From Dolomedes plantarius (lineage: Eukaryota; Arthropoda; Arachnida; Araneae; Dolomedidae), in assembly GCA_907164885.2 (NCBI GenBank), contig OU015498.1:122935727-122999726 (forward strand): a DNA stretch of 64,000 nucleotides. The letters run 5' to 3'. The number at the start of each line of letters is the position of its first letter. The first letter of the stretch is position 1. The notes beneath the pieces were generated by a model that worked only from the letters and a program-made list of their open reading frames with translations, made no database searches and had not been told where the DNA came from. The position numbers and the translations under genes were made by a program. Shown here piece by piece: positions 1,925 through 64,000 of this stretch.

Positions 1925-2106
1925 ATGTCTGAAATGTACCTTTTATCAACTTTGTTAATAGGAAAAAGTGCGAACTATATCGCAATGACGGAATCATACT
2001 GCTCTAGCGTCTTGCCTGTATTCAGGTTAGGTATGCCCCGAGTAATTCTAAAATTTGTAGTGATTTCTATGATACTCCGTTTCGAGGTAGGTTTTAGCGC
2101 TTCCGC

Positions 2107-2498
2107 ACTGACTGCAGTATCATACACATATTGTGTATTTTGTAGTACTAAAAATCATGAAACGGTAAATTGCTTCTCAACTGCAGACATAAAAAGGGAT
2201 TCAATCATTAACCAGCACCGTTTTCTCCATTGCCTGAAAAGAGGGCACTTGTCAAAATTTTGTTTCAGAAAAGATTAGTGCGATTTTTGTAATAAACCGT
2301 ATAATAGTTTAACACGTAACAATGAAGTTGTCGCAGTGAATAAATCTAAAGAAAGAACTGAGAGTGTGACACATGAAATTAATAATAATATGGCGTCTGT
2401 TATCACATTGCATATTATGGGGGAGAAAGAAAAAGTACTCGTATTACTCCAGACTTGTGTAGCGCGATCCTAAAATCAAAGAAAGGAGATAAATTAGT
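2107..2498 (+). pseudogene. BEL-1 gag zinc knuckle and start of protease (decayed)
   Basis: The translation shows the BEL/Pao Gag knuckle pattern: CVFCSTKNHETVNC, then CLKRGHLSKFC, the two CCHC boxes that bind genomic RNA in the capsid. A stop follows at 2276-2278, and downstream VLVLLQTC matches the Gag-protease junction of BEL elements. The aspartic-protease core should come next but is cut by the MITE at 2500; a piece of it (a tripeptide YSG where DSG is usual) lies at 3064-3106, between the MITE and the Tc1 element. Upstream Gag is not readable. Part of the plus-strand element continued at 4327, 6975 and 7690. Confidence 0.7.
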
Positions 2499-2499
2499 A

Positions 2500-3061
2500 G
2501 GGTAGGTGGGGGCAAAGTTTCGCATGTACATTTGAAAATGACCGGGAAGAGTTTTGGGTGGAATCCGGTAGACAATGCATTCGTATTCTCCCAGTCAGTT
2601 GCCTCATGAAAGCTGTTGGAGTTACGACCTTCTCCTGCAGAGAAAATGAGATAAGCTTATTTTCGTCCTTTTTAATGCAATTTTTTGCAACTTTTGAGTA
2701 ATATTGAGCATCACTCAAACTCGAGAACTGTTTTGTGATTATTTTCACATGTTAGGGTGGTAAATAATCTTTCAAATCCTACCTTAAGTTTTGGGTAACT
2801 CAAATACAATGGTATCCATTCTGCGTAAAGGTTTTGCTTAAAGGTTTGCACCCCACCGATTGGGGCAAAGGTTCGCAAACAGGTGTTTTGGTAAAATTAA
2901 AAATTCGGCGCCTAAAGTTTTCGGGAAAAAATTCATTATTTCATAGAAGGTAGAGGAGATACCCAACTACAATACAAGTGACTTTTTGGGGCGATAGGAT
3001 CTAATGGAGGCCCGTAAAAAACGAAAATCTCAAAACTGAAAACCTTTGCCCCCACCTACCC
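2500..3061. mobile_element. MITE with TIR GGGTAGGTGGGGGCAAAG
   Basis: The left end GGGTAGGTGGGGGCAAAG is matched as an inverted repeat by CTTTGCCCCCACCTACCC at the right end, and both are flanked by TA (2498-2499 and 3062-3063). The 562-bp interior has no transposase; an internal GGGGCAAAGGTT (about 2872) repeats the terminal motif. It interrupts the BEL-1 protease reading, which confirms it as an insertion. The TA duplication suggests mobilisation by a Tc1/mariner-type enzyme, but the superfamily is not proven. Confidence 0.7.
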
Positions 3062-3108
3062 TAAGGTTATTATTTTACTCAGGCATCGTAGCTTTGTGAA
3101 ACGTAATA

Positions 3109-4324
3109 CACTGAAGTGCCACTGAATTAGGGATACGTACCTAGTAACGAGTTGGGCCTCCTCTGGCCTTGATAACGGCTGCCACACGACGAGGCATAGA
3201 TTCAACAAGTTTCTGGAAACGTTCCACGGGAATGGCTTGCCAAATATTGGCTAAAGCTGTCCATAATTCAGTGAGGTTCTTTGGTGCTGTGTGATGGCCT
3301 TTCACGCCTTGTTCCAAAACATCCCAAAGATGCTCAATAGGATTTAAGTCTGGGCTTCTAGGTGGCCAATTCATGACAGAGAAGTCAGAGGAATGCTCAT
3401 CCAACCAGCCAGTAGCCAACCGGGACTTGTGAGAGGTACAGTTGTCTTGCTGGAAAACTCCATTACCGTGCGGATAACAGAACAGCATAAACGGATGGAA
3501 GTGATCACCCAGCAACTCTACGTACCGAATTGCATTGAGGAAGGTTGGTACACGCACCAAAGATCCCAAACTGTGCCACGAAAAAACACCCCAGACCATG
3601 ATTGAGCCACCATGCCCTTGTACAGTTCCAGCCAGGCATGTAGGATCCATGGCTTCATGAGCCTGACGCCATATTCTCAGCCTCCCGTCGGCGTTAAGTA
3701 GTCGGAATCGAGACTCATCACTCCATGCTACTCGTTTCCAGTCCTCTACACTCCAGTCTCTGTGCTCTCTTGCCCAGGCAAGACGTGCCCGATGGCGCGT
3801 ATAGAGCAATGGTACTCTCGTAGGTCGACGGCTCCCGAAACCCATACGGTGAAGCGAGCGTTTCACAGTCCGTTTACTGACTGTACGACTGGCACCGTCA
3901 TTAAACTGGGTGGTAATTTGAGCTAATGTTTGGTTTCGCTGGCTACGTACAATACGCCTGAGCCGTCTCTCACCACGCACTGTCAAGGCTAATTGTCCTT
4001 TGCAGTTTGTCCGATCGCTAGTTTTTTTCCACCATCCATGTATTCTTGGTATACTCTTGACACTGTCGACCTTGAAAATCCTAGCTGTCTGACGATTTCG
4101 GAAATTGAATGGCCCATGCGTCGCGCACCTACGATTTGTCCGCGATCGAAGGCGTCTAAATCAGGCAGTTTACCCATACTGGCAATTCCAACAACTAATT
4201 CAGAACAACCACAGTACGCGCTATATATGCAGTTACCACAACGCCCTCACTTGCGCATACATGATGCGCAGCTCTACAGAATTTGCATAGGCTTTGCTAT
4301 CCCTAATTCAGTGGCACTTCAGTG
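3109..4324 (-). mobile_element. Tc1-type transposon, DD36E spacing, complete with TIRs
   Basis: Perfect 27-bp terminal inverted repeats (starting CACTGAAGTGCCACTGAATT) bound a 1216-bp element flanked by TA at 3107-3108 and 4325-4326. It carries one minus-strand transposase gene with a single frameshift. It sits inside the BEL-1 protease. The perfect TIRs and single indel argue for a recent insertion relative to the host retrotransposon. DD36E spacing is that described for the Incomer group of Tc1/mariner elements; placement there rests on my residue count. Confidence 0.9.
3141..4177 (-). pseudogene. Tc1-type DD36E transposase, one frameshift
   Basis: A cut-and-paste transposase that would bind the 27-bp TIRs. 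From the ATG at 4175-4177, the first about 50 residues hold a helix-turn-helix (ISEIVRQLGFSRSTVSRV). The frame shifts in the A-run near 4020-4028 and continues from before 3986 to 3141. The catalytic triad is visible: WSDESRF (first D), QQDNCTSH (second D) and SPDLNPIEHLW (E), with 36 residues between the second D and E. Total length of about 340 residues is normal for Tc1. With one indel in a homopolymer, either recent decay or a sequencing error would explain the break. Confidence 0.88.
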
Positions 4325-4326
4325 TA

Positions 4327-4570
4327 TTTGTGTTGAATTGAACCTCCAATTCATTAAAAGCGAAAGGTTGCAAATCTATGGTTTCGGTAGTGAGTATGCT
4401 AAGCATTTCTCGTGTGATTTGGTACAGCTAGATCTTCGAAACACAAAAATTGAGATGCTACGAATTCCATTGGAAGCGCTCGTTGTAAACGAAATAACAC
4501 ATGCCAATATTCCCCCTCCCCCGTTGGAAGTGAAATAGGCTGTGATGTCTCCGGAGATCGGTGATGACGC
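4327..4570 (+). pseudogene. BEL-1 protease/DUF1758-like segment
   Basis: Directly after the right TA of the Tc1 element, the plus strand encodes SERLQIYGFGSEYAKHF and, further on, IPLEALV and NIPPPPLEV, the pattern that follows the aspartic-protease motif in BEL/Pao Pol. A stop lies at 4536-4538 and the similarity runs to about 4570, where 28S rRNA sequence begins. The next part of the same protein (FDLSDTGELDDVDVLVGAD) resumes at about 6980, so the 28S-R2 block is an insertion in this gene. Confidence 0.7.
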
Positions 4571-4572
4571 AA

Positions 4573-4658
4573 TGTGATTTCTGCCCAGTGTTATGAATGT
4601 CAAAGTGAAGAAATTCAGCCAAGCGCGGGTAAACGGCGGGAATAACTATGACTCTCTT
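4573..4658 (+). rRNA. partial 28S rRNA fragment ending at the R2 target site
   Basis: About 86 bp match the highly conserved 28S stretch upstream of the R2 site: TTTCTGCCCAGTG, AATGTCAAAGTGAAGAAATT, GCGCGGGTAAACGGCGGG and AACTATGACTCTCTT. A few positions differ from the common metazoan sequence (for example GTTATG where GCTCTG is usual, and GGGAATAAC where GGGAGTAAC is usual), so it is a pseudogene fragment. The match stops exactly after CTCTCTT, where R2 elements join 28S DNA; the AAGG that normally follows is missing. Nothing downstream of the site (TAGCCAAATGCC) is present. Confidence 0.88.
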
Positions 4659-5813
4659 ACACGGGAGACATAGGAATTTCGCGTTATTGCAGATGCCCCT
4701 ACCTCCGCATGGTTCGGGCTGGAAACTGGATTTATCCAGGGTAAGAGGGGTCAAGCCTGCCAAGAACAGGTTATCAAACGTTTCGTCGTCCTAACGACAT
4801 GAGCACCTATGGGATGAAGGCAGTGGAGTCTGGGACTGAACCTGGGAAACCAGGTTCGGACCTTTTTTCCTCAGGGCGGAAAATGGGAAAACAGAAAACT
4901 CAAATGCGATCTGGGTTTGAAACTCTGCATCGAACGTACCGACACCTGCCGGGATGGCTTAGGCCTGCCACGGCAAACTTGGAAAATATGGGTGCCTTCG
5001 TCCCCTCGGACCACTTGGTCCACATATCGGTTACCCGGCCTCAGTCGTGGAAACAGTACCGAGTGTGCTGGTCAATGTCTCATATGAGCTACGTTGACCG
5101 GGTTGAAACACCTATGCACAAAAGTCTTCGGGTGATCCCCGAAGCGGTTTAAGTGGTATAGCGAGCCATGATGTCTCAAAGTGTGGTACGTCCGAGTTGG
5201 TATGACTACCCCATTGACGCCTACATTTAATCGCACTCTACGTGCGATTTCACACACCTCGCCCGATAAGATCCAGATTGGATAAGAAATTGGGCACCTC
5301 CCACTTAGGTACGGGTCGACTGACAAAACGCCGTTTCCCCGACGTGGTCCGGAGTCTAAGCTTACTCTCGAACGCAAATCCTCTCTATGTTCCGTGGCTC
5401 GGCAATACTCGTTTTGGACGAGGGAACGCCGACCGAATAACGGTCTTGCTGAACGGATTATTGGACCCTACGTCCCGCACTCAGCGGGTCGCGAAAATGG
5501 GATTCCATGTCCTGGCAATTCTCCTCCGAAACTCATTCGGGTGAGGGCAATACTGAGGTATCCCGGACCCACTGCCTACGTGACGCTTGCTGACTTGGCG
5601 CGTTGCTAATGGGAACGGTTAAACGTTCCTCCGTATGAGGCTATTTCGGTTAAGGCTTTAGGTCTTGTTAGGGCACTTGTATCATGTGTTTAGTAAGCGA
5701 AATGTGCAAGTTGCTAATCTCTCCTTTTTCTCTTCTAGGTTCTGAGCTCTGGTGATCTGAATTTCTCGAAGTCTTTTGCTGGTTCTACTACAACATTACT
5801 TTTCAGTACTACT

Positions 5814-6269
5814 TTGGACTCTTCTTGTATCACTATGGATACCATCTGTGTCGTCGTGCCTGTGCAGGGTCAGCTTGACTGCCCATCGTGCAGCCAATCT
5901 TTCCGGTCCTTTCGCGACTTGGAAAGGCACAGACGAATTATTCACCAGTGCGAGACACTGGTACGCTGTGCCCACTGCGGACGTCGGGGAAATTCTTACT
6001 ACGCCATGACGATCCACCACGCCAAGTGCGCACCGAAACCCGATAAGGAGGATCTACAGAGAGTAAATCCATTCGTGTGACCACAAAGCGGCGAAAAATT
6101 CTGGACCATATCCGGAGTTTCTCAGCACAGGAGACACCGACATGTCGTAATCGTTAACGAGGAGCGTTTGGCCGCTCAAAAGGCCGTTGCTGGAATGGTG
6201 GCCGCTGTATGGTCACCTAAGGATGAGGAAGATCTTCTTCTCTGGATCACGGTATGGACGGATCCCTAA
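5814..6269 (+). pseudogene. R2 ORF N-terminus: zinc fingers and Myb-like motif
   Basis: Frame 3 from 5814 reads two zinc fingers, CPSCSQSFRSFRDLERH with RRIIH following, and CAHCGRRGN with IHHAKC following. After a stop at 6078-6080 a decayed third finger (SGVSQHRRHRH) remains but its two expected cysteine positions are a stop and a serine. A Myb-like segment, VWSPKDEEDLLLW, follows near 6207-6245. In R2 proteins these domains recognise the 28S target. Three fingers plus Myb point to an R2-A-like subclade. The reading is closed by a stop near 6267. The start at 5814 is only the first ATG in frame; R2 often lacks a clear start codon. Confidence 0.75.
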
Positions 6270-6405
6270 GCAAGAGACGCTGATGGTACGGCTTGCGGAA
6301 CGGTTCTCAACGTACTCGCAACTCAAGTACAGGCTTAAAGTGGGGAGACGCAGGTCCCGAACGGCTGACTCGTAGACTGCGATACCCCAGTGCCCGCAGC
6401 CGGAT

Positions 6406-6939
6406 GTGGAAGAGGAGCCCCAAACTGAGGACCCCACCTCCCCCGCGGATGATTGTCCGCATGCGGCGTCACCGGATGGATGCGGTTGGGCGTACATTGA
6501 GATGTGGACAAAGGAAATGATGAGAGAACTCATCCTCCTAAACCCGATCAAGAAGCGGTCGAAGCCCCAACCCAAAAAGGGTAGGAAATGGGCTAAGCGA
6601 ACTGGAGTTGCCGGTCAGCGCGCGGATTTATTCGCAAACTGCCAGCGACTTTGGGGAGTCGACCCCGCACGAGTAGCGCAGACCATTCTCGATTCTAGTG
6701 AGGAAACTCTGGGTTCGCCCACTCTCCGCAATGCCACGGACTTCTACCGTGGATTGTTCGAAGTATCGAATGACGCTGATGGCTCTTTCCCGAGAACCAC
6801 CAATTACCCGTCTTGTGTTCCGCTCGTGCAGCCTATCACGCCGCGGGAGGTAAAAACCGTTATTCGACGGATGAACCACAAATCCGCTGCCGGACCAGAC
6901 GGAATATACCCTATGCAGTTGACGTCCCCTGCTCCATAA
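6406..6939 (+). pseudogene. R2 ORF middle: pre-RT region and RT start
   Basis: A different frame from the zinc-finger segment. A basic stretch (KKRSKPQPKKGRKWAK) precedes the linker FYRGLFEVSN and then ITPREVKTVIRRMNHKSA followed by AGPDGI, which is the first conserved block of R2-clade reverse transcriptases. The reading ends at a stop at 6937-6939 shortly after that block. The catalytic FADD motif and the restriction-like endonuclease are absent because the element is cut here. Confidence 0.72.
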
Positions 6940-6974
6940 ATAGCTGTTTTCCCCGCAGAATTCGCTGCAGTTCT

Positions 6975-7560
6975 CGATGTGTGTGGACGCCTTATAAGAA
7001 GTTTGACCTTTCTGACACTGGAGAACTCGACGACGTAGATGTTCTTGTGGGGGCGGATTGTCTGTTTGAAGTTTTGTGAGACAGATCTTTTATATTAGGC
7101 TTGGTGAAAAACACTTCGCAACCGATAGCTTATTTGGATTTGTGGTTCAAGGAAGGGAAACTAATGGGTGCGGTACTTCTGTAATTGAAAACCATGCAGC
7201 TGCAACTTGTAATGCCTGATACAAAATTGTTTTCGGAACTAGAAGGTGTAGACATTGATAAAAGGAATGAAAATGATATTGTTTGTGATAATGAAATAAG
7301 AGAGTCCGTTAAATCAAATCGTCAATATGTAAATGACAGAAATACTGTAACGATTCTATGGAAACCTGGTACTAACCATTCATTGATACACAACTTTGAA
7401 CTAGCCTCAGAAAGATTCCGTAGATTTCGGACGCATTCTAAAAATGACCGTCTTTTGATTCATAATAATGAAAATGCCGTACAGGAACACTTACGCGACG
7501 GAATAAATGAGAAAGTAGCAGATAACAATAATGAAGGAATCAGTCGGAAGTTTATGCAGA
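6975..7560 (+). pseudogene. BEL-1 protease end and Pol N-terminus (decayed)
   Basis: FDLSDTGELDDVDVLVGAD is the conserved segment closing the BEL/Pao protease region. After frameshifts, VVQGRETNGCG and then LEGVDIDKRNENDI, TILWKPGTNHSL, FELASERFRRF and EHLRDGINEKV follow the order seen at the start of BEL/Pao Pol before the RT. Frames change at least twice between 7080 and 7185. The RT, RNase H and integrase core that should follow are missing; the reading breaks near 7560 and only the extreme Pol C-terminus is found at about 7690. Confidence 0.72.
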
Positions 7561-7689
7561 GGAGAGCCCAATGGTGGGGAAAGAGACGGGACGGGAAACT
7601 CAAATGCGGAGACAAGGACGGGAAAAAAGGCTGTGTTTACTCCAGATGAGAACTGATCACTACTTAAACGACTACTGCAGCTCGAAAAG

Positions 7690-7850
7690 ATCTCCGAAGA
7701 GGGGGGATATAGTGTTGTTTCGACGGAATAAGCAAGTCGAAGTTGCTGTAGGACTTCGCACACGAACTTGTGCGATCTTGTATCGTTCGTACTGCCATAG
7801 TACGTTTCAACAGACCTGATCAACTATTATACCCTTTGGAGAATTACATT
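7690..7850 (+). pseudogene. BEL-1 Pol C-terminus remnant
   Basis: KRGDIVLF matches the start of the C-terminal domain of BEL/Pao integrase (DUF5641-like). In a shifted frame RFNRPDQLLYPLEN matches its closing motif (usually ending LYPLE). Together with the Pol N-terminus less than 150 bp upstream this shows a large internal deletion of BEL-1. Confidence 0.6.
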
Positions 7851-8440
7851 AGAGTGAACTCAAATATAGTATTGATTTTGTATGTTCGATACAGCTTTAC
7901 CTTACTATATTGTGCTGTAATTAATAACTGTAAAATTTATTATTGCTAATTTGTGACTTGCGTCACAGTTAACTGTATTTACTATAGATGAATTAAGATT
8001 AGTATTTTATGTAAAGTGTTATGATATAATTTTCCTTAGTTTTATATTAGCTTTTTTCTTGAAATTAACAGGAAATGTAACGTGTATGAACTCTTTTATG
8101 AGTTCAGGTGGGGAGTATAACATATTTATTCGTTCCCGAGAGGGCGCTGCTTTGTATACCTGGTGTAGCCCTATCTTTGCCACAGAAAGAGAACCGATCC
8201 ACTGGGGGTCCGAATGTTTACCAAAGTGGAGTAGCACTGTAGTTGTGGTAACCTGAGAAACTACAATACAAAACTATGAGGAAGTCAAGGCAGTACTGCC
8301 ACCTATTGACCCTTGCAATAAATAAGTGATAATCACTCTCCTTTGTCTAGATACAGCAAATACAATCTTTTCTTCGTTTGTTAGGCCAAAGTTACCCCAG
8401 TTGACGGTATTCAATTAAGTTTTAAATATGTGCATATATA
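7851..8440 (+). repeat. probable BEL-1 3' untranslated region and LTR remnant
   Basis: The tract after the Pol end contains AGGTGGGGAGTATAACA (about 8105-8122), the kind of purine-rich sequence found just before the 3' LTR of BEL/Pao elements. I cannot find the matching 5' LTR in the window, so the LTR limits are a guess. No gene is supported. Confidence 0.4.
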
Positions 8441-9093: not shown

Positions 9094-9830
9094 CTAATTG
9101 TTGACCACCAATATTTCATCTCCCTTAAAGGTACGTGCATTGTCAGAGTATACTATAGAACACAGCCCAAGTCTAGCGTTGAATCGTCGAAAACCTAACA
9201 GAAAGGTTTCTATTATTATGTTTCTAACTAATTCCAAATGCACAGATCTGGTAACCCCACAAATAAACAGTAAGATTTGCTGTTTATCAGGACTATCTCT
9301 GACATATAATGGACCACCGAAATCGATTCCAACCACAGAGAAAGTTGGCGCTTGTTCGATGCGATTAGCAGGAAGAGGCGCAGTAATCTGTTTTCCAGGA
9401 ACCGAGTTAAGTCTTTTACACACAACACATTTTCTTAAGTTGATTTTTTTATGGCTTGTCTACCTTTCGTCAGCCAAAATTTTTCTCGTAACTGTATCAT
9501 AGTTTTCGATACTCCAGTTCGGAAAACTTTTTCATAAGCGTCCCAAATCAATAGTTCAGCAAACCTGTCCTTAGAAGAAATTATTATAGGATGTTTAGTA
9601 TAAAACTCCAAATTAGACTTTTCTAATCTTCCTTTTACTACTATTAGATCATCATCAGAAATTATAGGGTTCAAGTCAAGAATTTTCGATTCCTTAAAGA
9701 CTTGCTTTCCTTCTTTAAGACATTTGAGTATATCAAAATAATATTTCCTTTGGATTTGTCGAATCCACATTTTCTCAGCATCTTCCAATTCTTAACTCAC
9801 CAAACTTTCGATCTTCCTTCTTATTTTTAG
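9094..9830 (-). pseudogene. BEL-2 integrase (zinc-binding part and core)
   Basis: From the upstream side, LEDAEKMWIRQIQ and LDLNPIISDDDLIVVKGRLE lead to KHPIIISSKDRFAELLI and FWLTKGRQAI, the N-terminal zinc-binding region. After a frame change, SVVGIDFGGPLYV (first catalytic D), THE-like ICGVTRSVHLEL and SDNARTFKG (second D) follow. The catalytic E is not readable. This enzyme would insert the retrotransposon cDNA; the copy is dead because of the frame breaks near 9430 and 9094. Confidence 0.78.
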
Positions 9831-10089
9831 CGTTAAAAATAAATTTTTTTACCCATGCTGTTATACGAGAAACTCTTTTAATAGAATTGTACTTTTCTAA
9901 ATCCGAGGTAAATTCCACTTTAGTAGTGTATTCGATTGCACAATGCAAACTTAGTTCAGGTTTTCATTTTTGTTCTTCTACAACATTATTCATTTCTTTC
10001 TTAGTAACAACACAATCACTTCTAGGCCACTGATCTTCATGCAATGATGACAAGAATTCAGGACCATGCCACCCTTTCCAAGATCTCTG

Positions 10090-10520
10090 TTAGTCTCTAA
10101 CACTACAACCTCTAGTTAGAATATTAACAGGATTACTCTTATCTTCACAATGTCTCCAATCTATAGGATTCGTAAAATACTGAATTTCAATTACCCTATT
10201 ACAAACAAAGGGCTTCCATTTCTTAGCACACTCTTTTATCCAACTGAAAACTATTTTCGAACCAGTCCAAAGAAACATAGTCTGAAACGGAAAAATGTTC
10301 TTCAAATAACTGACAATCCTTGAAGCAATTAAAGCTCCCATGAGTTCAAGTCTAAGCAACATTAACCTTTTCAAAGGACTAATTCTGCATTTAGAAATAA
10401 ATGAGATCAATATCTCACCACTATTATTCTCGAATCGTAAATAAGCAACCGCACGATATGCTACAGGAGACGCATCTCAAAACCCTTGTAGATGCGCATT
10501 GCAACTCATTCCATGCATAC
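10090..10520 (-). pseudogene. BEL-2 RNase H region
   Basis: DASPVAYRAVAYLRFEN (upstream of 10410), then SKCRISPLKRLMLLRLELMG, TGSKIVFSWIKECAKKWK and PIDWRHCEDKSNPVNILTRG give the BEL/Pao RNase H-like block. The D of DASP and the E of LELMG are catalytic-type residues; the usual SD of the third motif reads TGSK here, so the site is damaged. Confidence 0.72.
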
Positions 10521-10717
10521 AAGCTGAAAAATAATATCTATCAATCATTAACTCTTTCAACAGACCTATCTCCAAACACCAATCCTTCCACTTCACCATC
10601 ATATCTTCTGGCAAATCATCGTCCCACTCACTACGTTTTCCCTATCAATACTAATATCACAAAATCCATTTTCAACCCATAATTCTTTTAACTCTTTTGA
10701 ATTAGTATTCAGTTTTC

Positions 10718-11280
10718 TCAAATTAATCCAGCATCACCTAAAATAAACACAGCATCCGAGGACAAACTGAATGCTTTCGACACTCTTTCTGCTCCATAAA
10801 ACACATCATCAACATACAACGATGAATCCAACATCTCAACGCACTCTCCTTTACCTTCTATTTTTTGCTTAAAATGGTGTTTGATCGTAGCGGCCAATAT
10901 AAAGGAACTACAAGTGACGCCGAATGTCACTCTTTTCATTTTGTAGGGTACAATATTTTTCTCAATGTCACAGTCGTCAAAATATATAAATCGTAATTCT
11001 GGTGTTCATTCTTTACCTTTATTGCAAAAATGCAGCTTGAATGTCCGCAGAGAAAGTTATTTTGTTTTCACGAAATTTTGATATAATATCCAAAATGTTA
11101 GGATTCAAGTTTGGCCCTAGCAAAAACCAATCATTCAAAGATGGGCCATTTAATTTTGAAGAAGCATCGTAAACAATACGTAATTTTCTGGTATCCTGAT
11201 CAGTTTTGATAACGAGTCTATGCGGCATTTAATATGAATCATCTAGAGGTAAATCCTCACATTTTTTTACCATGTTTTTA
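10718..11280 (-). pseudogene. BEL-2 reverse transcriptase (fragmented)
   Basis: The upstream part reads MPHRLVIKTDQDTRKLRIVY then DASSKLNGPSLND and FSADIQAAFLQ (RT motif A). Downstream, FGVTCSSFILAATIKHH and LYVDDVFYGAERV hold the catalytic YVDD box. A frame change separates the two near 10990. It would copy the element RNA. Upstream of 11280 the BEL-2 reading stops and resumes at 16200 beyond the non-LTR insertion. Confidence 0.8.
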
Positions 11281-11573: not shown

Positions 11574-11632
11574 TCATCAAAAAAATTTTAAAAAAGCATT
11601 TATTAATACATAGAATTGTCAAGTTTATATCA
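11574..11632. repeat. 56-bp direct repeat, left copy
   Basis: An AT-rich block ending ATACATAGAATTGTCAAGTT plus TATAT is repeated at 16108-16163 with only two G-to-A differences over about 56 bp. The two copies flank the non-LTR element, as a long target-site duplication would. Confidence 0.75.
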
Positions 11633-13620: not shown

Positions 13621-14900
13621 TTGATGATATTATTGTGTATGTGCATTTTTCAACGTTAAAATTTAGTTCATTCTTTCTAGCCCATGCTTCACACTTGGAT
13701 AGTATCTTTGTAGAGAGTTCTTGGAACTTGTATATTACTGGGCTTTTTATTAGTATTAGTATGTCGTCGGCAAATGCTTGTAGATGGTAAGATTTATCGC
13801 TTGCGCAGTCTTGAAAAAGCTCGTTAATTATGGTTAGCCAAAGAATCGGGCCCAGTGAAGATCCTTGAGGGACTTCGACGTTATACTCCCATTCACCATT
13901 GCTTAATAGTATTTTTCTATCCGTGAGGTAGTCTATTATTGATCTTAATAATGTGTCTTCTAGGTTGAGTTTTTTAAGTTCTTCTATTAGTCATGATCTT
14001 TTTATAGAGTTGAATGCACTTTTGATATCTAATGAAATCATGCATGTGTTGTTTTTTGCCTTTGTATTTTCTTTGATGGTTCCTAAGACTTTGCGTAGTG
14101 CATCTGATGTTCCCATGTTTCTCCGAAATCCGTATTGCTTGTCTGATAGCAGTTTGTTTTCGTCAAGGTGTTCTACTAATCTATTTGTTAGGATTTTGTC
14201 ATATACTTTACCCATTACTGGTAGGAGACAGATTGGTCTATAGCTACTGGCTTGTGTGTGATCTTTTCCTTCTTTTGGGAAATAGACTACCTTTGATATT
14301 TTCCATTCTTTGGGAAATTTTGCTTTTTTCCAGAACACATTGTATAATTCTTTTAGTATTGTTATATTGCTTAATTGTATTTCTTCTATTATACTTGTGG
14401 TAAGTCCATCGTAGCCCGGCGATTTATCTTTTGCCATTTCCTTGATTATTATTTTAATTTCTTTTTCCGTTATTTTATTCTCTGTATTTGCTTTTTGGTT
14501 TCTTATCTGGGTTGATGATGAGGATTCATTCTTTGTTTCGAAGTGATATTTTGCCAGTATCAATTCTGTTTCTTTGTTGTCTGTATGCAGTATTCCATTT
14601 TTCGTCTTTTACTCCTTCTATTATTTGTTTTTTGTACATTTTGTCTCTTATTATTTTATATATGGTTCCAAATGTATCTTTTACTGTGATTTTTTCCAAG
14701 TATTCTTTGTATGTGTTTCTTTTTGCTTCTAGGAGTGCTTTCTTGTACTTTGCTCTTTCTTTTTTGTATATTATTTTATATCTGTCTCTTTCATTTTCAT
14801 TAGTTGTTCGCTGCATTTTTCTTCTTAATGCTCTTACTTTTCTTCTTTGTGTGTTTAGTCTTGGTAGACGTTTTTTTGTCCTTTTGTTTTTACTTTATGT
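13621..14900 (-). pseudogene. non-LTR ORF2 reverse transcriptase
   Basis: Minus-strand reading: a Lys-rich linker (ERAKYKKALLEAKRNTYKEY), then DKSPGYDGLTTSIIEEIQ (RT block 1), PKEWKISKVVYFPKEGKD, SSYRPICLLPVMGKVYDKIL and QYGFRRNMGTSDAL, then SLDIKSAFNSI (motif A). In another frame HLQAFADDILILI holds the catalytic FADD box near 13760-13800. At least two frame breaks (near 14540 and 13990) inactivate it. Motif order and spacing are those of Jockey-superfamily RTs. Confidence 0.85.
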
Positions 14901-16107: not shown

Positions 16108-16163
16108 AAATCAAAAAAATTTTAAAAAAACATTTATTAATACATAGAATTATCAAGTTTATA
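16108..16163. repeat. 56-bp direct repeat, right copy
   Basis: Matches 11574-11632 except for two G-to-A differences. It sits immediately beyond the truncated ORF1 of the non-LTR element and immediately before BEL-2 Pol. Confidence 0.75.
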
Positions 16164-16199
16164 TGATTCAACAGAAAATTTAAAAACATGGTGTATAAA

Positions 16200-22818: not shown

Positions 22819-23305
22819 CAGGGGTGTCAAACTCGCGGCCCGCGACGAACATTTCTGCGGGCCGACCAATATATTGGCACACAATAATATATAATAAAAT
22901 AACCGACGCAGAATTATAATAAAATAGGAAGAATTCGCTAAATGTTTTTTTAATGATACTCTTTTTTGCTATTATTAAACAAAATGCATATATTTATGTT
23001 GAATATGCTGTAATTAGGTAAATAAATTTTCTATTAATATTGATTTTTTTTTTGCGGCCCACCTATAGGTGGGCCGGTAAAATTACCGGCTATTCGGTAC
23101 TTGGTATCAGTACCGAAATATATATTATATCATCAAGTGAGCTTCGCTCGCATCATTTTAATTTGACGCATTTGCGGAGTTCGAGGTATAAAACTCATTT
23201 TTATTGTCTTGGCTATAAATATACCGTAGAGTAGGAGTCTTCAACCTTTCACCTTCCAACACCTTGTTTGTTTGCCCAAGGTAACCTTTGAGTTTGACAC
23301 CCCTG
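22819..23305. mobile_element. hAT MITE (CAGGGGTGTCAAACTC ends)
   Basis: Left CAGGGGTGTCAAACTC and right GAGTTTGACACCCCTG are perfect inverted repeats; the duplications CCGTACAC (22811-22818) and CCGTACTC (23306-23313) agree at 7 of 8 positions. No transposase. It lies in the right part of the Harbinger-like element and shares a 158-bp block with DNA at 23636. Confidence 0.85.
23099..23256. repeat. 158-bp repeat, copy 1
   Basis: Starts ACTTGGTATCAGTACC and ends CAACCTTTCACCTTC. I see no difference from 23636-23793. It lies within the hAT MITE; its end resembles a hAT terminus (GGAGTCTTCAACC), so it may be part of a further hAT family. Confidence 0.8.
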
Positions 23306-23635: not shown

Positions 23636-23793
23636 ACTTGGTATCAGTACCGAAATATATATTATATCATCAAGTGAGCTTCGCTCGCATCATTTTAATT
23701 TGACGCATTTGCGGAGTTCGAGGTATAAAACTCATTTTTATTGTCTTGGCTATAAATATACCGTAGAGTAGGAGTCTTCAACCTTTCACCTTC
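23636..23793. repeat. 158-bp repeat, copy 2
   Basis: Direct copy of 23099-23256 placed 537 bp downstream, outside the hAT MITE, with unrelated flanks. After it the sequence continues GAGGGCAACATCAG into what may be hAT internal DNA (GCGGGCCACTCATC). Confidence 0.8.
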
Positions 23794-54589: not shown

Positions 54590-55854
54590 TGATAACAGAA
54601 GGGGTGTTAAATTATCGGTGATAATAATTAGGTTAACTTTAAGATAATAAAAGTTAATTTACTTAATGCTTTTGATGGTAAATTAGAGCTGTTGGTGCAA
54701 AGATAGATTTTATCTATTTGGTTATTAATATTAACTCAAATGATAAGTTAAGTTATTAAGCACCTTACTCAGTACATCGCTTTGTGAATTATCCGTTGAG
54801 TTAATATTTAGCATGCAGTGAGGACATACACATAAATACAAATCAAATTACTTGAATGCATTCCTTTTATTTTAGGCCTTCTCACATTACACAATCATTA
54901 CTAAAACACCTTATCAAATTACTAAATATGCAAAACTCATCATAAATCATGAACATTATTGGGCCTGTTCTTAACACTTCAAATGTGCTAACTCATTGTT
55001 AAATCAAATACATTAAAAATTGTCAGGCCTCTTCTTTATCACATTTAAACACATATCACTTATTAGACAATCAATTAGTACATTAAAAACAAAGAAATAC
55101 AATCGCTCACCAGTTTGCTGAGGTATCGAGAATCATAGCATTTTTTGAAGCACGTGGATTTTATATAATCATGTTGATTGATTCCGCCAGAATAGTTTTT
55201 CACAAATATCGACTTAGCACTCACGAGAACGAATCTCACATTCCCTATATAACACGAGCGTTCAGTATGTAGTGATATCTGGAACAACACACGAGAATAA
55301 TTCCATCAGAACACGTGGTTACAAGTTCCGCCGAGAATGCCTTGCGCGGCAATATATGCAGTCATTCCATCAGACTGGCTCATACATAGCACATATTATG
55401 GTCGTTCGACTTTCACACGAAAAAAATATAGGCAATTGAAGAACTCTGGCACTCACTCGCTTCAGAGTATCCAGACACAATCGCAATCCATCCGTGGAAA
55501 TAAAATTTTTCACGTATCGGCCATTTACCTCATTTAGTGCAGGTATCCGAATGCTCAAGAATTATATTCGTATTTCGAGAAAAATCTTTTCGGTCACTAT
55601 TTCACATGCCTCCTCTTTTTGTAGCTTCAAATTTTACACAAGCCGGTGTAGCTCCACGCACGAACTCCATGTAGGAATCCGTCGTGAGCTACTGTCTTCA
55701 CAATCTAAAAATCGCGGTCTTTATCCACCACCGTTGCCACTCAGTTCCTCTTAACTTTTGCTGGTGCTTGAATCAGGGAATGGTATGCGCCTCGACGCAA
55801 CGCATTTTCGCAATTGCGATTTGCTCACAAATTGTGAAAGTCCTTGCTTTCACA
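54590..55854 (-). repeat. Gypsy 3' LTR
   Basis: 1265 bp; on the minus strand it begins TGTGAAAGCAAGG and ends CTGTTATCA. The start is set by the adjoining purine tract, the end by alignment with the 5' LTR. Confidence 0.88.
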
Positions 55855-63039: not shown

Positions 63040-64000
63040 TGATAACAGAAGGGGTGTTAAATTATCGGTGATAATAATTAGGTTAACTTTAAGATAATAA
63101 AAGTTAATTTACTTAATGCTTTTGATGGTAAATTAGAGCTGTTGGTGCAAAGATAGATTTTATCTATTTGGTTATTAATATTAACTCAAATGATAAGTTA
63201 AGTTATTAAGCACCTTACTCAGTACATCGCTTTGTGAATTATCCGTTGAGTTAATATTTAGCATGCAGTGAGGACATACACATAAATACAAATCAAATTA
63301 CTTGAATGCATTCCTTTTATTTTAGGCCTTCTCACATTACACAATCATTACTAAAACACCTTATCAAATTACTAAATATGCAAAACTCATTATAAATCAT
63401 GAACATTATTGGGCCTGTTCTTAACACTTCAAATGTGCTAACTCATTGTTAAATCAAATACATTAAAAATTGTCAGGCCTCTTCTTTATCACATTTAAAC
63501 ACATATCACTTATTAGACAATCAATTAGTACATTAAAAACAAAGAAATACAATCGCTCACCAGTTTGCTGAGGTATCGAGAATCATAGCATTTTTTGAAG
63601 CACGTGGATTTTATATAATCATGTTGATTGATTCCGCCAGAATAGTTTTTCACAAATATCGACTTAGCACTCACGAGAACGAATCTCACATTCCCTATAT
63701 AACACGAGCGTTCAGTATGTAGTGATATCTGGAACAACACACGAGAATAATTCCATCAGAACACGTGGTTACAAGTTCCGCCGAGAATGCCTTGCGCGGC
63801 AATATATGCAGTCATTCCATCAGACTGGCTCATACATAGCACATATTATGGTCGTTCGACTTTCACACGAAAAAAATATAGGCAATTGAAGAACTCTGGC
63901 ACTCACTCGCTTCAGAGTATCCAGACACAATCGCAATCCATCCGTGGAAATAAAATTTTTCACGTATCGGCCATTTACCTCATTTAGTGCAGGTATCCGA
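63040..64000 (-). repeat. Gypsy 5' LTR (partial, runs off window)
   Basis: 961 bp aligned with 54590-55550, no indel, one substitution. About 300 bp more should lie beyond 64000. Confidence 0.95.

What the first reader, a model, noticed from the sequence alone, without database searches (positions are those of the whole stretch)
4573..6945. 28S rRNA-R2 chimera inserted in a BEL protease gene, retaining the 5' half
The 28S match ends at the exact R2 target (CTCTCTT) and R2 zinc fingers, a Myb-like motif and the first RT block follow, yet the block lies in the middle of a BEL-1 protease. R2 is normally confined to 28S genes and loses 5' sequence when truncated; this copy keeps upstream 28S and the 5' end and lacks the 3' half. 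Possible origins are a cDNA from an unprocessed 28S-R2 co-transcript (the family normally cleaves itself off with a 5' ribozyme) or a fragment of rDNA captured during break repair. The missing AAGG and TAGCC suggest a normal R2 5' junction upstream of a later cut.
Basis: partly seen in the sequence, partly recalled or inferred. Interest (0 to 1): 0.78.

Follow-up and report, generated by a model that had tools for sequence, protein, structure and literature searches.

The report
Ribosomal-R2 fragment patching a transposon break
A piece of ribosomal RNA gene with the front half of an R2 jumping gene sits outside ribosomal DNA, apparently used as patch material when a small DNA transposon left a break inside an old retrovirus-like element.

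Summary
Window 4551-4659 is 28S rRNA gene sequence (105 of 109 positions equal to four other genomic copies) ending at the R2 site; 4660-6913 is the 5' UTR, zinc fingers and first RT block of a decayed R2. Both edges were fixed with other copies from the same 2.78-Gb genome. On the left, BEL/Pao sequence runs to 4550. On the right, R2 is joined not to BEL but, at 6914, to the last 81 bp of a ~333-bp inverted-repeat MITE with 3-bp target duplications; then TAA, then BEL. Uninterrupted BEL copies show that the MITE had entered a TA(A) site. The 28S-R2 block replaces the MITE's 5' three quarters, and its left edge lies within 2 nt of the MITE's own insertion point. Best reading (inferred): MITE excision broke the chromosome, and abortive gap repair copied or captured a 28S-R2 unit as filler before joining to the MITE's 3' remnant. 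R2 retrotransposition does not explain it. The joins were seen once only in the searches made, and the 28S, R2 and MITE parts are all mutated, so assembly chimerism is unlikely. A new instance of a known repair process; other 28S-R2 pieces lie outside full 28S genes.

The parts
2096..2497 (+). BEL/Pao gag-pro part upstream of nested insertions
   Evidence: L056 BEL ORF residues 145-266 by tblastn on 2096-2464; colinear with other copies
2498..3063 (.). inverted-repeat element nested in the BEL (23-nt arms, 96% complementary)
   Evidence: the repeat finder I2; BEL copies continue across it
3105..4328 (.). Tc1/mariner-like transposon nested in the BEL (31-nt arms, 100%)
   Evidence: the repeat finder I1; BEL copies continue across it; Tc1 family name recalled, not tested
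4329..4550 (+). BEL/Pao left flank, ends GATGTCT
   Evidence: four BEL copies (L041, L044, L046, L049) match to exactly 4550
4551..4659 (+). 28S rRNA gene fragment, ends at R2 target CTCTCTTA
   Evidence: Rfam; own-genome 28S copies
4660..5834 (+). R2 5' UTR, including an HDV-like ribozyme core at about 4690-4757
   Evidence: starts at the R2 target; core shared with six dispersed copies
5835..6913 (+). decayed R2 ORF: zinc fingers, Myb-like region (label by eye), first RT block; truncated at 6913
6914..6994 (+). last 81 bp (3' end) of a ~333-bp inverted-repeat MITE
   Evidence: 31 genomic matches begin at 6911-6914, 28 of them at 6914; 5 of 81 differences to the majority of 10 copies
6995..6997 (+). 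TAA, right-hand target duplication of the MITE
   Evidence: 8 of 10 MITE copies have matching 3-bp flanks (read); BEL copies have TA or TAA here
6998..8100 (+). BEL/Pao right flank, appears internally deleted (by eye)

Best explanation
The block is filler DNA at a transposon-excision break. Shown: a MITE of about 333 bp with 3-bp target duplications stood in the TAA of a BEL sequence GATGTC-TAA-GGGGTTTGACC; its last 81 bp and the right TAA are still there; its first ~250 bp and two bases of the left TAA are gone; in their place lie 109 nt of 28S and 2254 nt of R2 in the order of an R2-bearing 28S gene, with nearly blunt joins. Inferred: transposase excision opened the left side at the target duplication; the free BEL end was extended on, or joined to, a 28S-R2 unit (a 7-nt word, TGCGATG, shared by two related BEL copies and 28S lies 2-3 nt before the join); after about 2.4 kb the copy was end-joined to the MITE's 3' part, which had remained or been copied back from the sister chromatid. 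On this reading the R2 machinery plays no part and R2 is a passenger in the captured rDNA. The product has no evident function: the R2 frame is broken and the MITE lacks one end.
For: Left edge of 28S coincides within 2 nt with the MITE insertion point, seen from BEL copies L041, L044, L045, L047, L049. Right edge is R2|MITE at 6913/6914: (40 matches scored of 170 candidates) the 8 other R2 matches stop at or before 6913 and the other 31 matches begin at 6911-6914; only the window spans it. The MITE has inverted ends and equal 3-bp flanks in 8 of 10 copies. A related insert stands at the same TAA in BEL copy L041, with TAA on both sides. Tan et al. (PMC8277862, passages) expect larger deletions and breakpoints at the element's end for excision-induced gap repair; here one breakpoint is at the end and about 75% of the MITE is lost. 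Tourist-like elements are proposed to excise with staggered cuts in the TSD (PMC4561436, abstract). 28S-R2 units that could serve as such filler exist outside full 28S genes (L038, L039).
Against: No excised allele or outgroup locus was available, so excision itself is inferred; Tan et al. found internal breaks, not excision, behind most animal cases. No transposase was tied to this MITE. The 7-nt word is intact in L041 and L044 but TGTGATG in the window, the join lies 2-3 nt beyond it, by local score 49 of 1105 BEL 20-mers match 28S as well as L044 does and 434 of 1105 as well as the window does, and the test is after the fact. The source R2 was not found: its 5' UTR has no other full match, its ORF start only one 77% relative. 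PIF/Harbinger-type excision is generally repaired precisely (PMC4561436, abstract), so this would be a rare miscarriage. L038 could also be R2 inserted into a dispersed 28S fragment rather than a captured unit.
Confidence: 0.6

Rival explanations
1. Gap filling after a spontaneous internal break in the MITE (no excision): resection happened to reach the MITE's left end, then a 28S-R2 template was copied.
For: Tan et al. (PMC8277862, passages) find this the main route for single-copy captures in animals; joins are nearly blunt.
Against: Requires the left boundary to fall by coincidence within 2 nt of the MITE insertion point after loss of about 250 bp.
Confidence: 0.17
2. A ready-made 28S-R2 DNA fragment (from a broken rDNA unit or an extrachromosomal rDNA circle) was ligated into the MITE-excision break rather than copied by template switching.
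For: Same anatomy; other 28S-R2 pieces lie outside full 28S genes in this genome.
Against: Word sharing near the left join hints at annealing, weakly; otherwise not distinguishable with these tools.
Confidence: 0.12
3. RNA-level origin: reverse transcriptase switched between a MITE- or BEL-containing RNA and an unprocessed 28S-R2 co-transcript, and the cDNA was inserted.
For: 28S and R2 are contiguous and in sense order; R2 is transcribed with 28S (PMC3774820).
Against: No poly(A) tail or new target duplication around the block seen by eye (not searched systematically); the left edge sits at a DNA-transposon insertion point; R2 cDNA starts at the 3' end, which is absent; no second copy of either join.
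Confidence: 0.07
4. Assembly chimera joining an rDNA read to a BEL locus.
For: rDNA is prone to misassembly; no reads were available.
Against: 28S part differs at 4 of 109 positions from four other copies, including conserved GGGAGTAAC to GGGAATAAC; no identical copy of the R2; both sides show BEL and MITE sequence in correct register.
Confidence: 0.03

Closest known systems
Filler capture in gap repair of TIR transposons / Pack-TIRs (Tan et al. 2021, PMC8277862, passages seen)
   Same: foreign DNA at a TIR element, nearly blunt joins, single copy
   Different: one TIR is lost and one breakpoint is terminal, as expected for excision; the paper reports no Pack-TIR in the insect reference genomes surveyed (one polymorphic family in fly populations) and mostly internal breaks; the filler here is rDNA with a retrotransposon junction
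R2 retrotransposon in 28S genes
   Same: target site, small 28S deletion at the 5' junction, zinc fingers, relative L035 closest to R2 chains of the zebra-finch type in the PDB (lineage A by recall)
   Different: outside a 28S gene, 3' part absent, only 109 nt of upstream 28S, no retrotransposition hallmark seen
BEL/Pao LTR retrotransposon
   Same: host element of the block; Pao peptidase and RT in relative L056
   Different: this copy is decayed and carries three nested insertions
Tourist/PIF-Harbinger-like MITE
   Same: about 333 bp, inverted ends, 3-bp TTA/TAA/ATA target duplication, more than 30 copies seen
   Different: TIRs imperfect; no transposase linked here

Membership tests
R2 retrotransposon | 5' junction at the 28S site CTCTCTTAAGG | tested here: met
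   28S ends CTCTCTTA at 4659, 3-nt deletion
R2 retrotransposon | RT of the R2 clade | tested here: met
   window fragment alone: only 3 chains matched in the PDB, all R2, but weak, E 0.07-0.16; nucleotide relative L035 (77.5-77.7%) hits R2 chains at E 2.7e-61
R2 retrotransposon | N-terminal zinc fingers | tested here: met
   zf-C2H2 E 5.1e-6, above cut-off; 2 R2 chains among 48 weak PDB matches, most of them other zinc-finger proteins
R2 retrotransposon | C-terminal restriction-like endonuclease and 3' junction | tested here: not met
   absent: copy truncated at 6913
R2 retrotransposon | 5' HDV-like ribozyme | tested here: inconclusive
   automatic search: 15 of 40 shuffles reach the best score; core shared with six copies fits a double pseudoknot drawn by me (92.1% of 126 cells paired, slid versions at most 48.8%) but shuffles reach that in 94 of 500
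BEL/Pao | Pao peptidase and RT in the same element | tested here: met
   in relative L056 aligned across the window copy; Pfam scans of the window's own pieces around the block gave no BEL hit
TIR MITE | inverted ends and constant-length target duplication | tested here: met
   imperfect TIR; 3-bp flanks equal in 8 of 10 copies (L024 and L030 disagree); L025 had no 5' end to test
PIF/Harbinger superfamily | mobilised by a PIF/Harbinger transposase | not tested
   only the 3-bp duplication and size agree
Pack-TIR | captured sequence flanked by both TIRs | tested here: not met
   5' TIR absent in the window
Excision-induced filler repair | breakpoint at the element's end / in its target duplication | tested here: met
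Excision-induced filler repair | direct evidence of excision | not testable with these tools
   no alleles or outgroup

The most novel reading that the evidence does not exclude
R2-bearing 28S units are a recurrent source of patch DNA for chromosome breaks in this genome: cuts made at 28S by R2, or rDNA circles, feed 28S-R2 ends into repair elsewhere, so that R2 lineages without a surviving intact copy persist as fossils with their 28S junction outside rDNA. The window block and other dispersed 28S-R2 pieces (L003, L005/L039, L004/L038, perhaps more of the 26 matches) would be products of that one route.
Probability: 0.15. Interest if true: 0.6.

Novelty: new member of a known kind. Interest (0 to 1): 0.42.

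Why it matters
R2 is the textbook case of an element tied to 28S genes. This locus gives a base-resolved way for R2 with its junction to leave rDNA without retrotransposing, and a likely animal example of filler capture at a DNA-transposon excision point, a scenario that Tan et al. (PMC8277862) set out but did not find to be the main one. It also preserves the 5' end of an R2 lineage for which no intact copy turned up in the searches of the assembly.

Tried and rejected
Rejected: R2 target-primed retrotransposition into BEL (would keep the 3' end; the block keeps the 5' end). SINE-tailed chimeric retrocopy (my own idea, note): dropped when the 6914-6997 repeat proved to have inverted ends and 3-bp duplications. 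BEL reverse-transcription template switch: dropped because the left edge sits at the MITE point and none of the 24 BEL relatives compared carries the block (15 further matches were not fetched). Upstream extension of 28S before 4551 (Rfam aligned from 4522-4528): rejected because four BEL copies match to 4550. Led nowhere: protein search with the BEL piece (354 candidates, none at E 0.001); R2 protein search found one relative, P0002 (5125 candidates); three scans of viral contigs (5, 2 and 8 pattern matches, no relative); automatic ribozyme search. The true rDNA array could not be located, so whether the donor was an array unit or a dispersed 28S-R2 piece is open. P0002 was not in the box, so the last part of the script did not run.

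Full report
Observation. The 28S match is real (Rfam RF02543, 84.4 bits). A search of the window's own genome (2.78 Gb, 390 contigs; window = C8:122935727-122999726) gave 26 matches including the window itself; five (L002-L006) match window 4551-4659 at 95-96%. Against L003 and L005 the window differs at 4 of 109 positions, against L006 at 5. The 28S part ends CTCTCTTA, the R2 target less AGG; 2-3 bp deletions there are reported for silkmoth R2 (PMC3774820, parts 1-2 of 7 read). Upstream cleavage by R2 ribozymes is reported up to 36 nt from the junction (abstract of the same paper), so 109 nt of 28S exceeds what a processed R2 RNA carries there; but the paper also reports horseshoe crab junctions with a further 113 nt of 28S, so length alone decides nothing.

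R2. Window 6484-6913 matches an R2 at seven places besides the window (L016-L022, six at 78% and one at 77%). The 442-aa open frame of that R2 (L035) hits R2 chains in the PDB first (E 2.7e-61; the R2Tg-type chains score above 8gh6, which I recall as the silkmoth protein). Window 5502-6660 matches a second R2 fragment, L037, at 76-78%. The window's own RT piece alone gives only R2 chains in the PDB, but weakly (3 chains, E 0.07-0.16), and its finger region matches 48 chains at E up to 1, two of them R2. The one protein relative found, P0002 (35% over 25%, E 4.5e-11), is itself R2-like (E 7.3e-128). The frame has stops and at least one shift. Query 4660-5260 found no other copy except a roughly 57-nt piece at five places.

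Right edge. In one search (40 matches scored of 170 candidates) the eight R2 matches other than the window end by 6913; the remaining 31 begin at 6911-6914, 28 of them at 6914, and are a short dispersed repeat; only the window spans the join. Eleven copies (L024-L034) were oriented and aligned. The majority of ten of them is 333 bp long with imperfect inverted ends (GGTGCATCCACATATA / GGTCCACACACATGGA), and the window holds its last 81 bp with 5 differences. Reading the ends printed, the 3 bp before and after the element agree in 8 of 10 copies (TTA, TAA or ATA; L024 and L030 disagree; L025 has no 5' end). By these signs it is a MITE of Tourist/PIF-Harbinger type; no transposase was sought.

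Left edge and empty site. Searching with BEL sequence right of the block gave 40 scored matches of 44 candidates, the window included. Of the 24 fetched relatives compared, four (L041, L044, L046, L049) match the window's left flank to exactly 4550; five stop earlier (L045 4542, L048 4533, L050 4523, L047 4512, L053 4408); the rest have no left match at the cut-off used. Three copies are uninterrupted at the site (L045 GTGTAGGGTTTGACC, L047 GTGTAAAGGGCTTGACC, L049 GTGTCTAGGGGACTTGACC); L046 has a short different stretch and L048 a deletion; L041 carries a related insert of about 225-231 bp with TAA on both sides (73-83% to the MITE majority in two pieces); L044 carries a different 341-bp insert with inverted-looking ends; in L042 and L043 BEL resumes near the same base but no left BEL was found in the stretch held. 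The window reads GATGTC-T|28S on the left and MITE-CCTTA|TAA|GAAGTTTGACC on the right. The block's left edge is thus the MITE insertion point, less two bases. Several copies carry an element at this TAA, so it may be a preferred target; PIF/Harbinger elements show an extended target preference (PMC2836001, passages). Whether the L041 insert and the window's MITE go back to one insertion cannot be told.

BEL identity. Pfam did not recognise the window's own flanks, so identity was tested through a relative: L056 has a 923-aa open frame with Pao peptidase A17 (3.7e-34), DUF1759 (2.2e-10) and RVT_1 (7.2e-9); its residues 145-266, 272-380 and 373-552 fall on window 2096-2464, 4260-4580 and 7008-7535 (the middle piece runs slightly into the Tc1 and the 28S, as local alignments do). 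The first break holds an inverted-repeat element (2498-3063) and a Tc1-like element (3105-4328); the second holds the block.

Joins. R2 relative ...TTTACCCTA|CCGCCC against window ...ATACCCTA|TGCAG: no shared base with the MITE majority, one with L025. Left: BEL GATGTCT and 28S GATGG share no base at the join itself, but L041 and L044 share TGCGATG with 28S 2-3 nt before it; 0 of 1113 BEL 12-mers share a word of 7 with the same 28S stretch, and 0 of 290 28S 20-mers score as high against the L044 BEL end; yet by local alignment score 49 of 1105 BEL 20-mers reach the L044 value and 434 of 1105 the window's own, and the window itself has TGTGATG. Suggestive only.

Mechanism. Tan et al. (PMC8277862, passages) describe capture of fillers when a TIR element's break is repaired and the template switches; they expect excision-induced cases to have larger deletions with breakpoints towards the element's ends, found most animal cases of the other type, and identified none in the insect reference genomes surveyed (one polymorphic family in fly populations). 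Here one breakpoint is at the end and about three quarters of the MITE is lost. Tourist-like elements are proposed to excise with staggered cuts within the TSD (PMC4561436, abstract). I therefore prefer excision-triggered repair at 0.6, with internal-break filling and simple ligation of an rDNA fragment as near rivals. Donor DNA rather than RNA is inferred, mainly from the absence of retrotransposition marks (by eye). L038 shows that 28S-R2 pieces lie outside full 28S genes here: 172 nt of 28S (all that Rfam found in 9.9 kb at its gathering score), an R2 with an 882-aa frame (R2 chains in the PDB, E 1e-107) and, by eye, about 80 nt of downstream 28S stand together; this could be a captured unit or R2 inserted into a dispersed 28S fragment. 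L003 carries the same R2 (96.5% over 486 residues) and L039 an R2 at 30-42%.

Ribozyme. The conserved piece at 4690-4757 and six dispersed relatives can be drawn as an HDV-like double pseudoknot: 92.1% of 126 cells pair against 20-49% when slid, but shuffles reach this in 94 of 500 and only one pair changes on both sides; the structure was drawn by me from these sequences. An automatic search over the window alone found nothing above shuffles (15 of 40 reach its best score). At the position I take for the catalytic cytosine (recalled), the six relatives have C and the window G.

Literature. Searches for R2 outside rDNA, rDNA capture by transposons and LTR or gap-repair capture (listings) showed no title or abstract start reporting a 28S-R2 piece at a MITE excision point; the held library lacks most subscription papers. 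PMC13188248 (passages) mentions non-rDNA R2-homologous proteins, a different matter.

Noticed in passing
L038/L004 (C10), L003 (C13), L005/L039 (C8): 28S fragments outside full 28S genes followed by R2 sequence of another lineage (one finger by eye, best PDB hit 8gh6). L002, L006, L007, L008 also end at the R2 target but were not tested for R2.
   Followed up: partly
L035 (C8:185974000-185983990) and L036 (C178:66000-75990): A tandem repeat (about 6.3 kb) containing a 5'-truncated R2 related to the window's and another RT-like frame; no ATGACTCTCTTA or TAGCCAAATGCCTCG motif found in the 10-kb stretches.
   Followed up: partly
window 4690-4757; L010-L014, L034:1821-1881: A roughly 60-nt ribozyme-like core shared with dispersed copies, some preceded by a 28S-like tail CTCTCTTA plus GGGGAGTTGTA: possibly short R2-derived elements outside rDNA.
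   Followed up: partly
BEL copies L041, L044 (and L042, L043) and window 4550/6995: Several BEL copies have different insertions at or next to the same TAA, a possible hot spot for MITEs.
   Followed up: partly
window 54590-55550 and 63040-64000: 961-bp direct repeat at 99.9% identity.
   Followed up: no
window 23099-23256 and 23636-23793: 158-bp perfect direct repeat.
   Followed up: no
window 9094-11228, minus strand: A second BEL/Pao element (Peptidase_A17, E 9.6e-13 at 10090-10476).
   Followed up: no
window 11576-11630 and 16110-16164: 55-bp direct repeat at 96% flanking a non-LTR element (RVT_1 at 13991-14608), unusually long if it is a target duplication.
   Followed up: no
L037 (C12:84811500-84817500): A second fragment of the window's R2 lineage, covering window 5502-6660 only.
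   Followed up: partly
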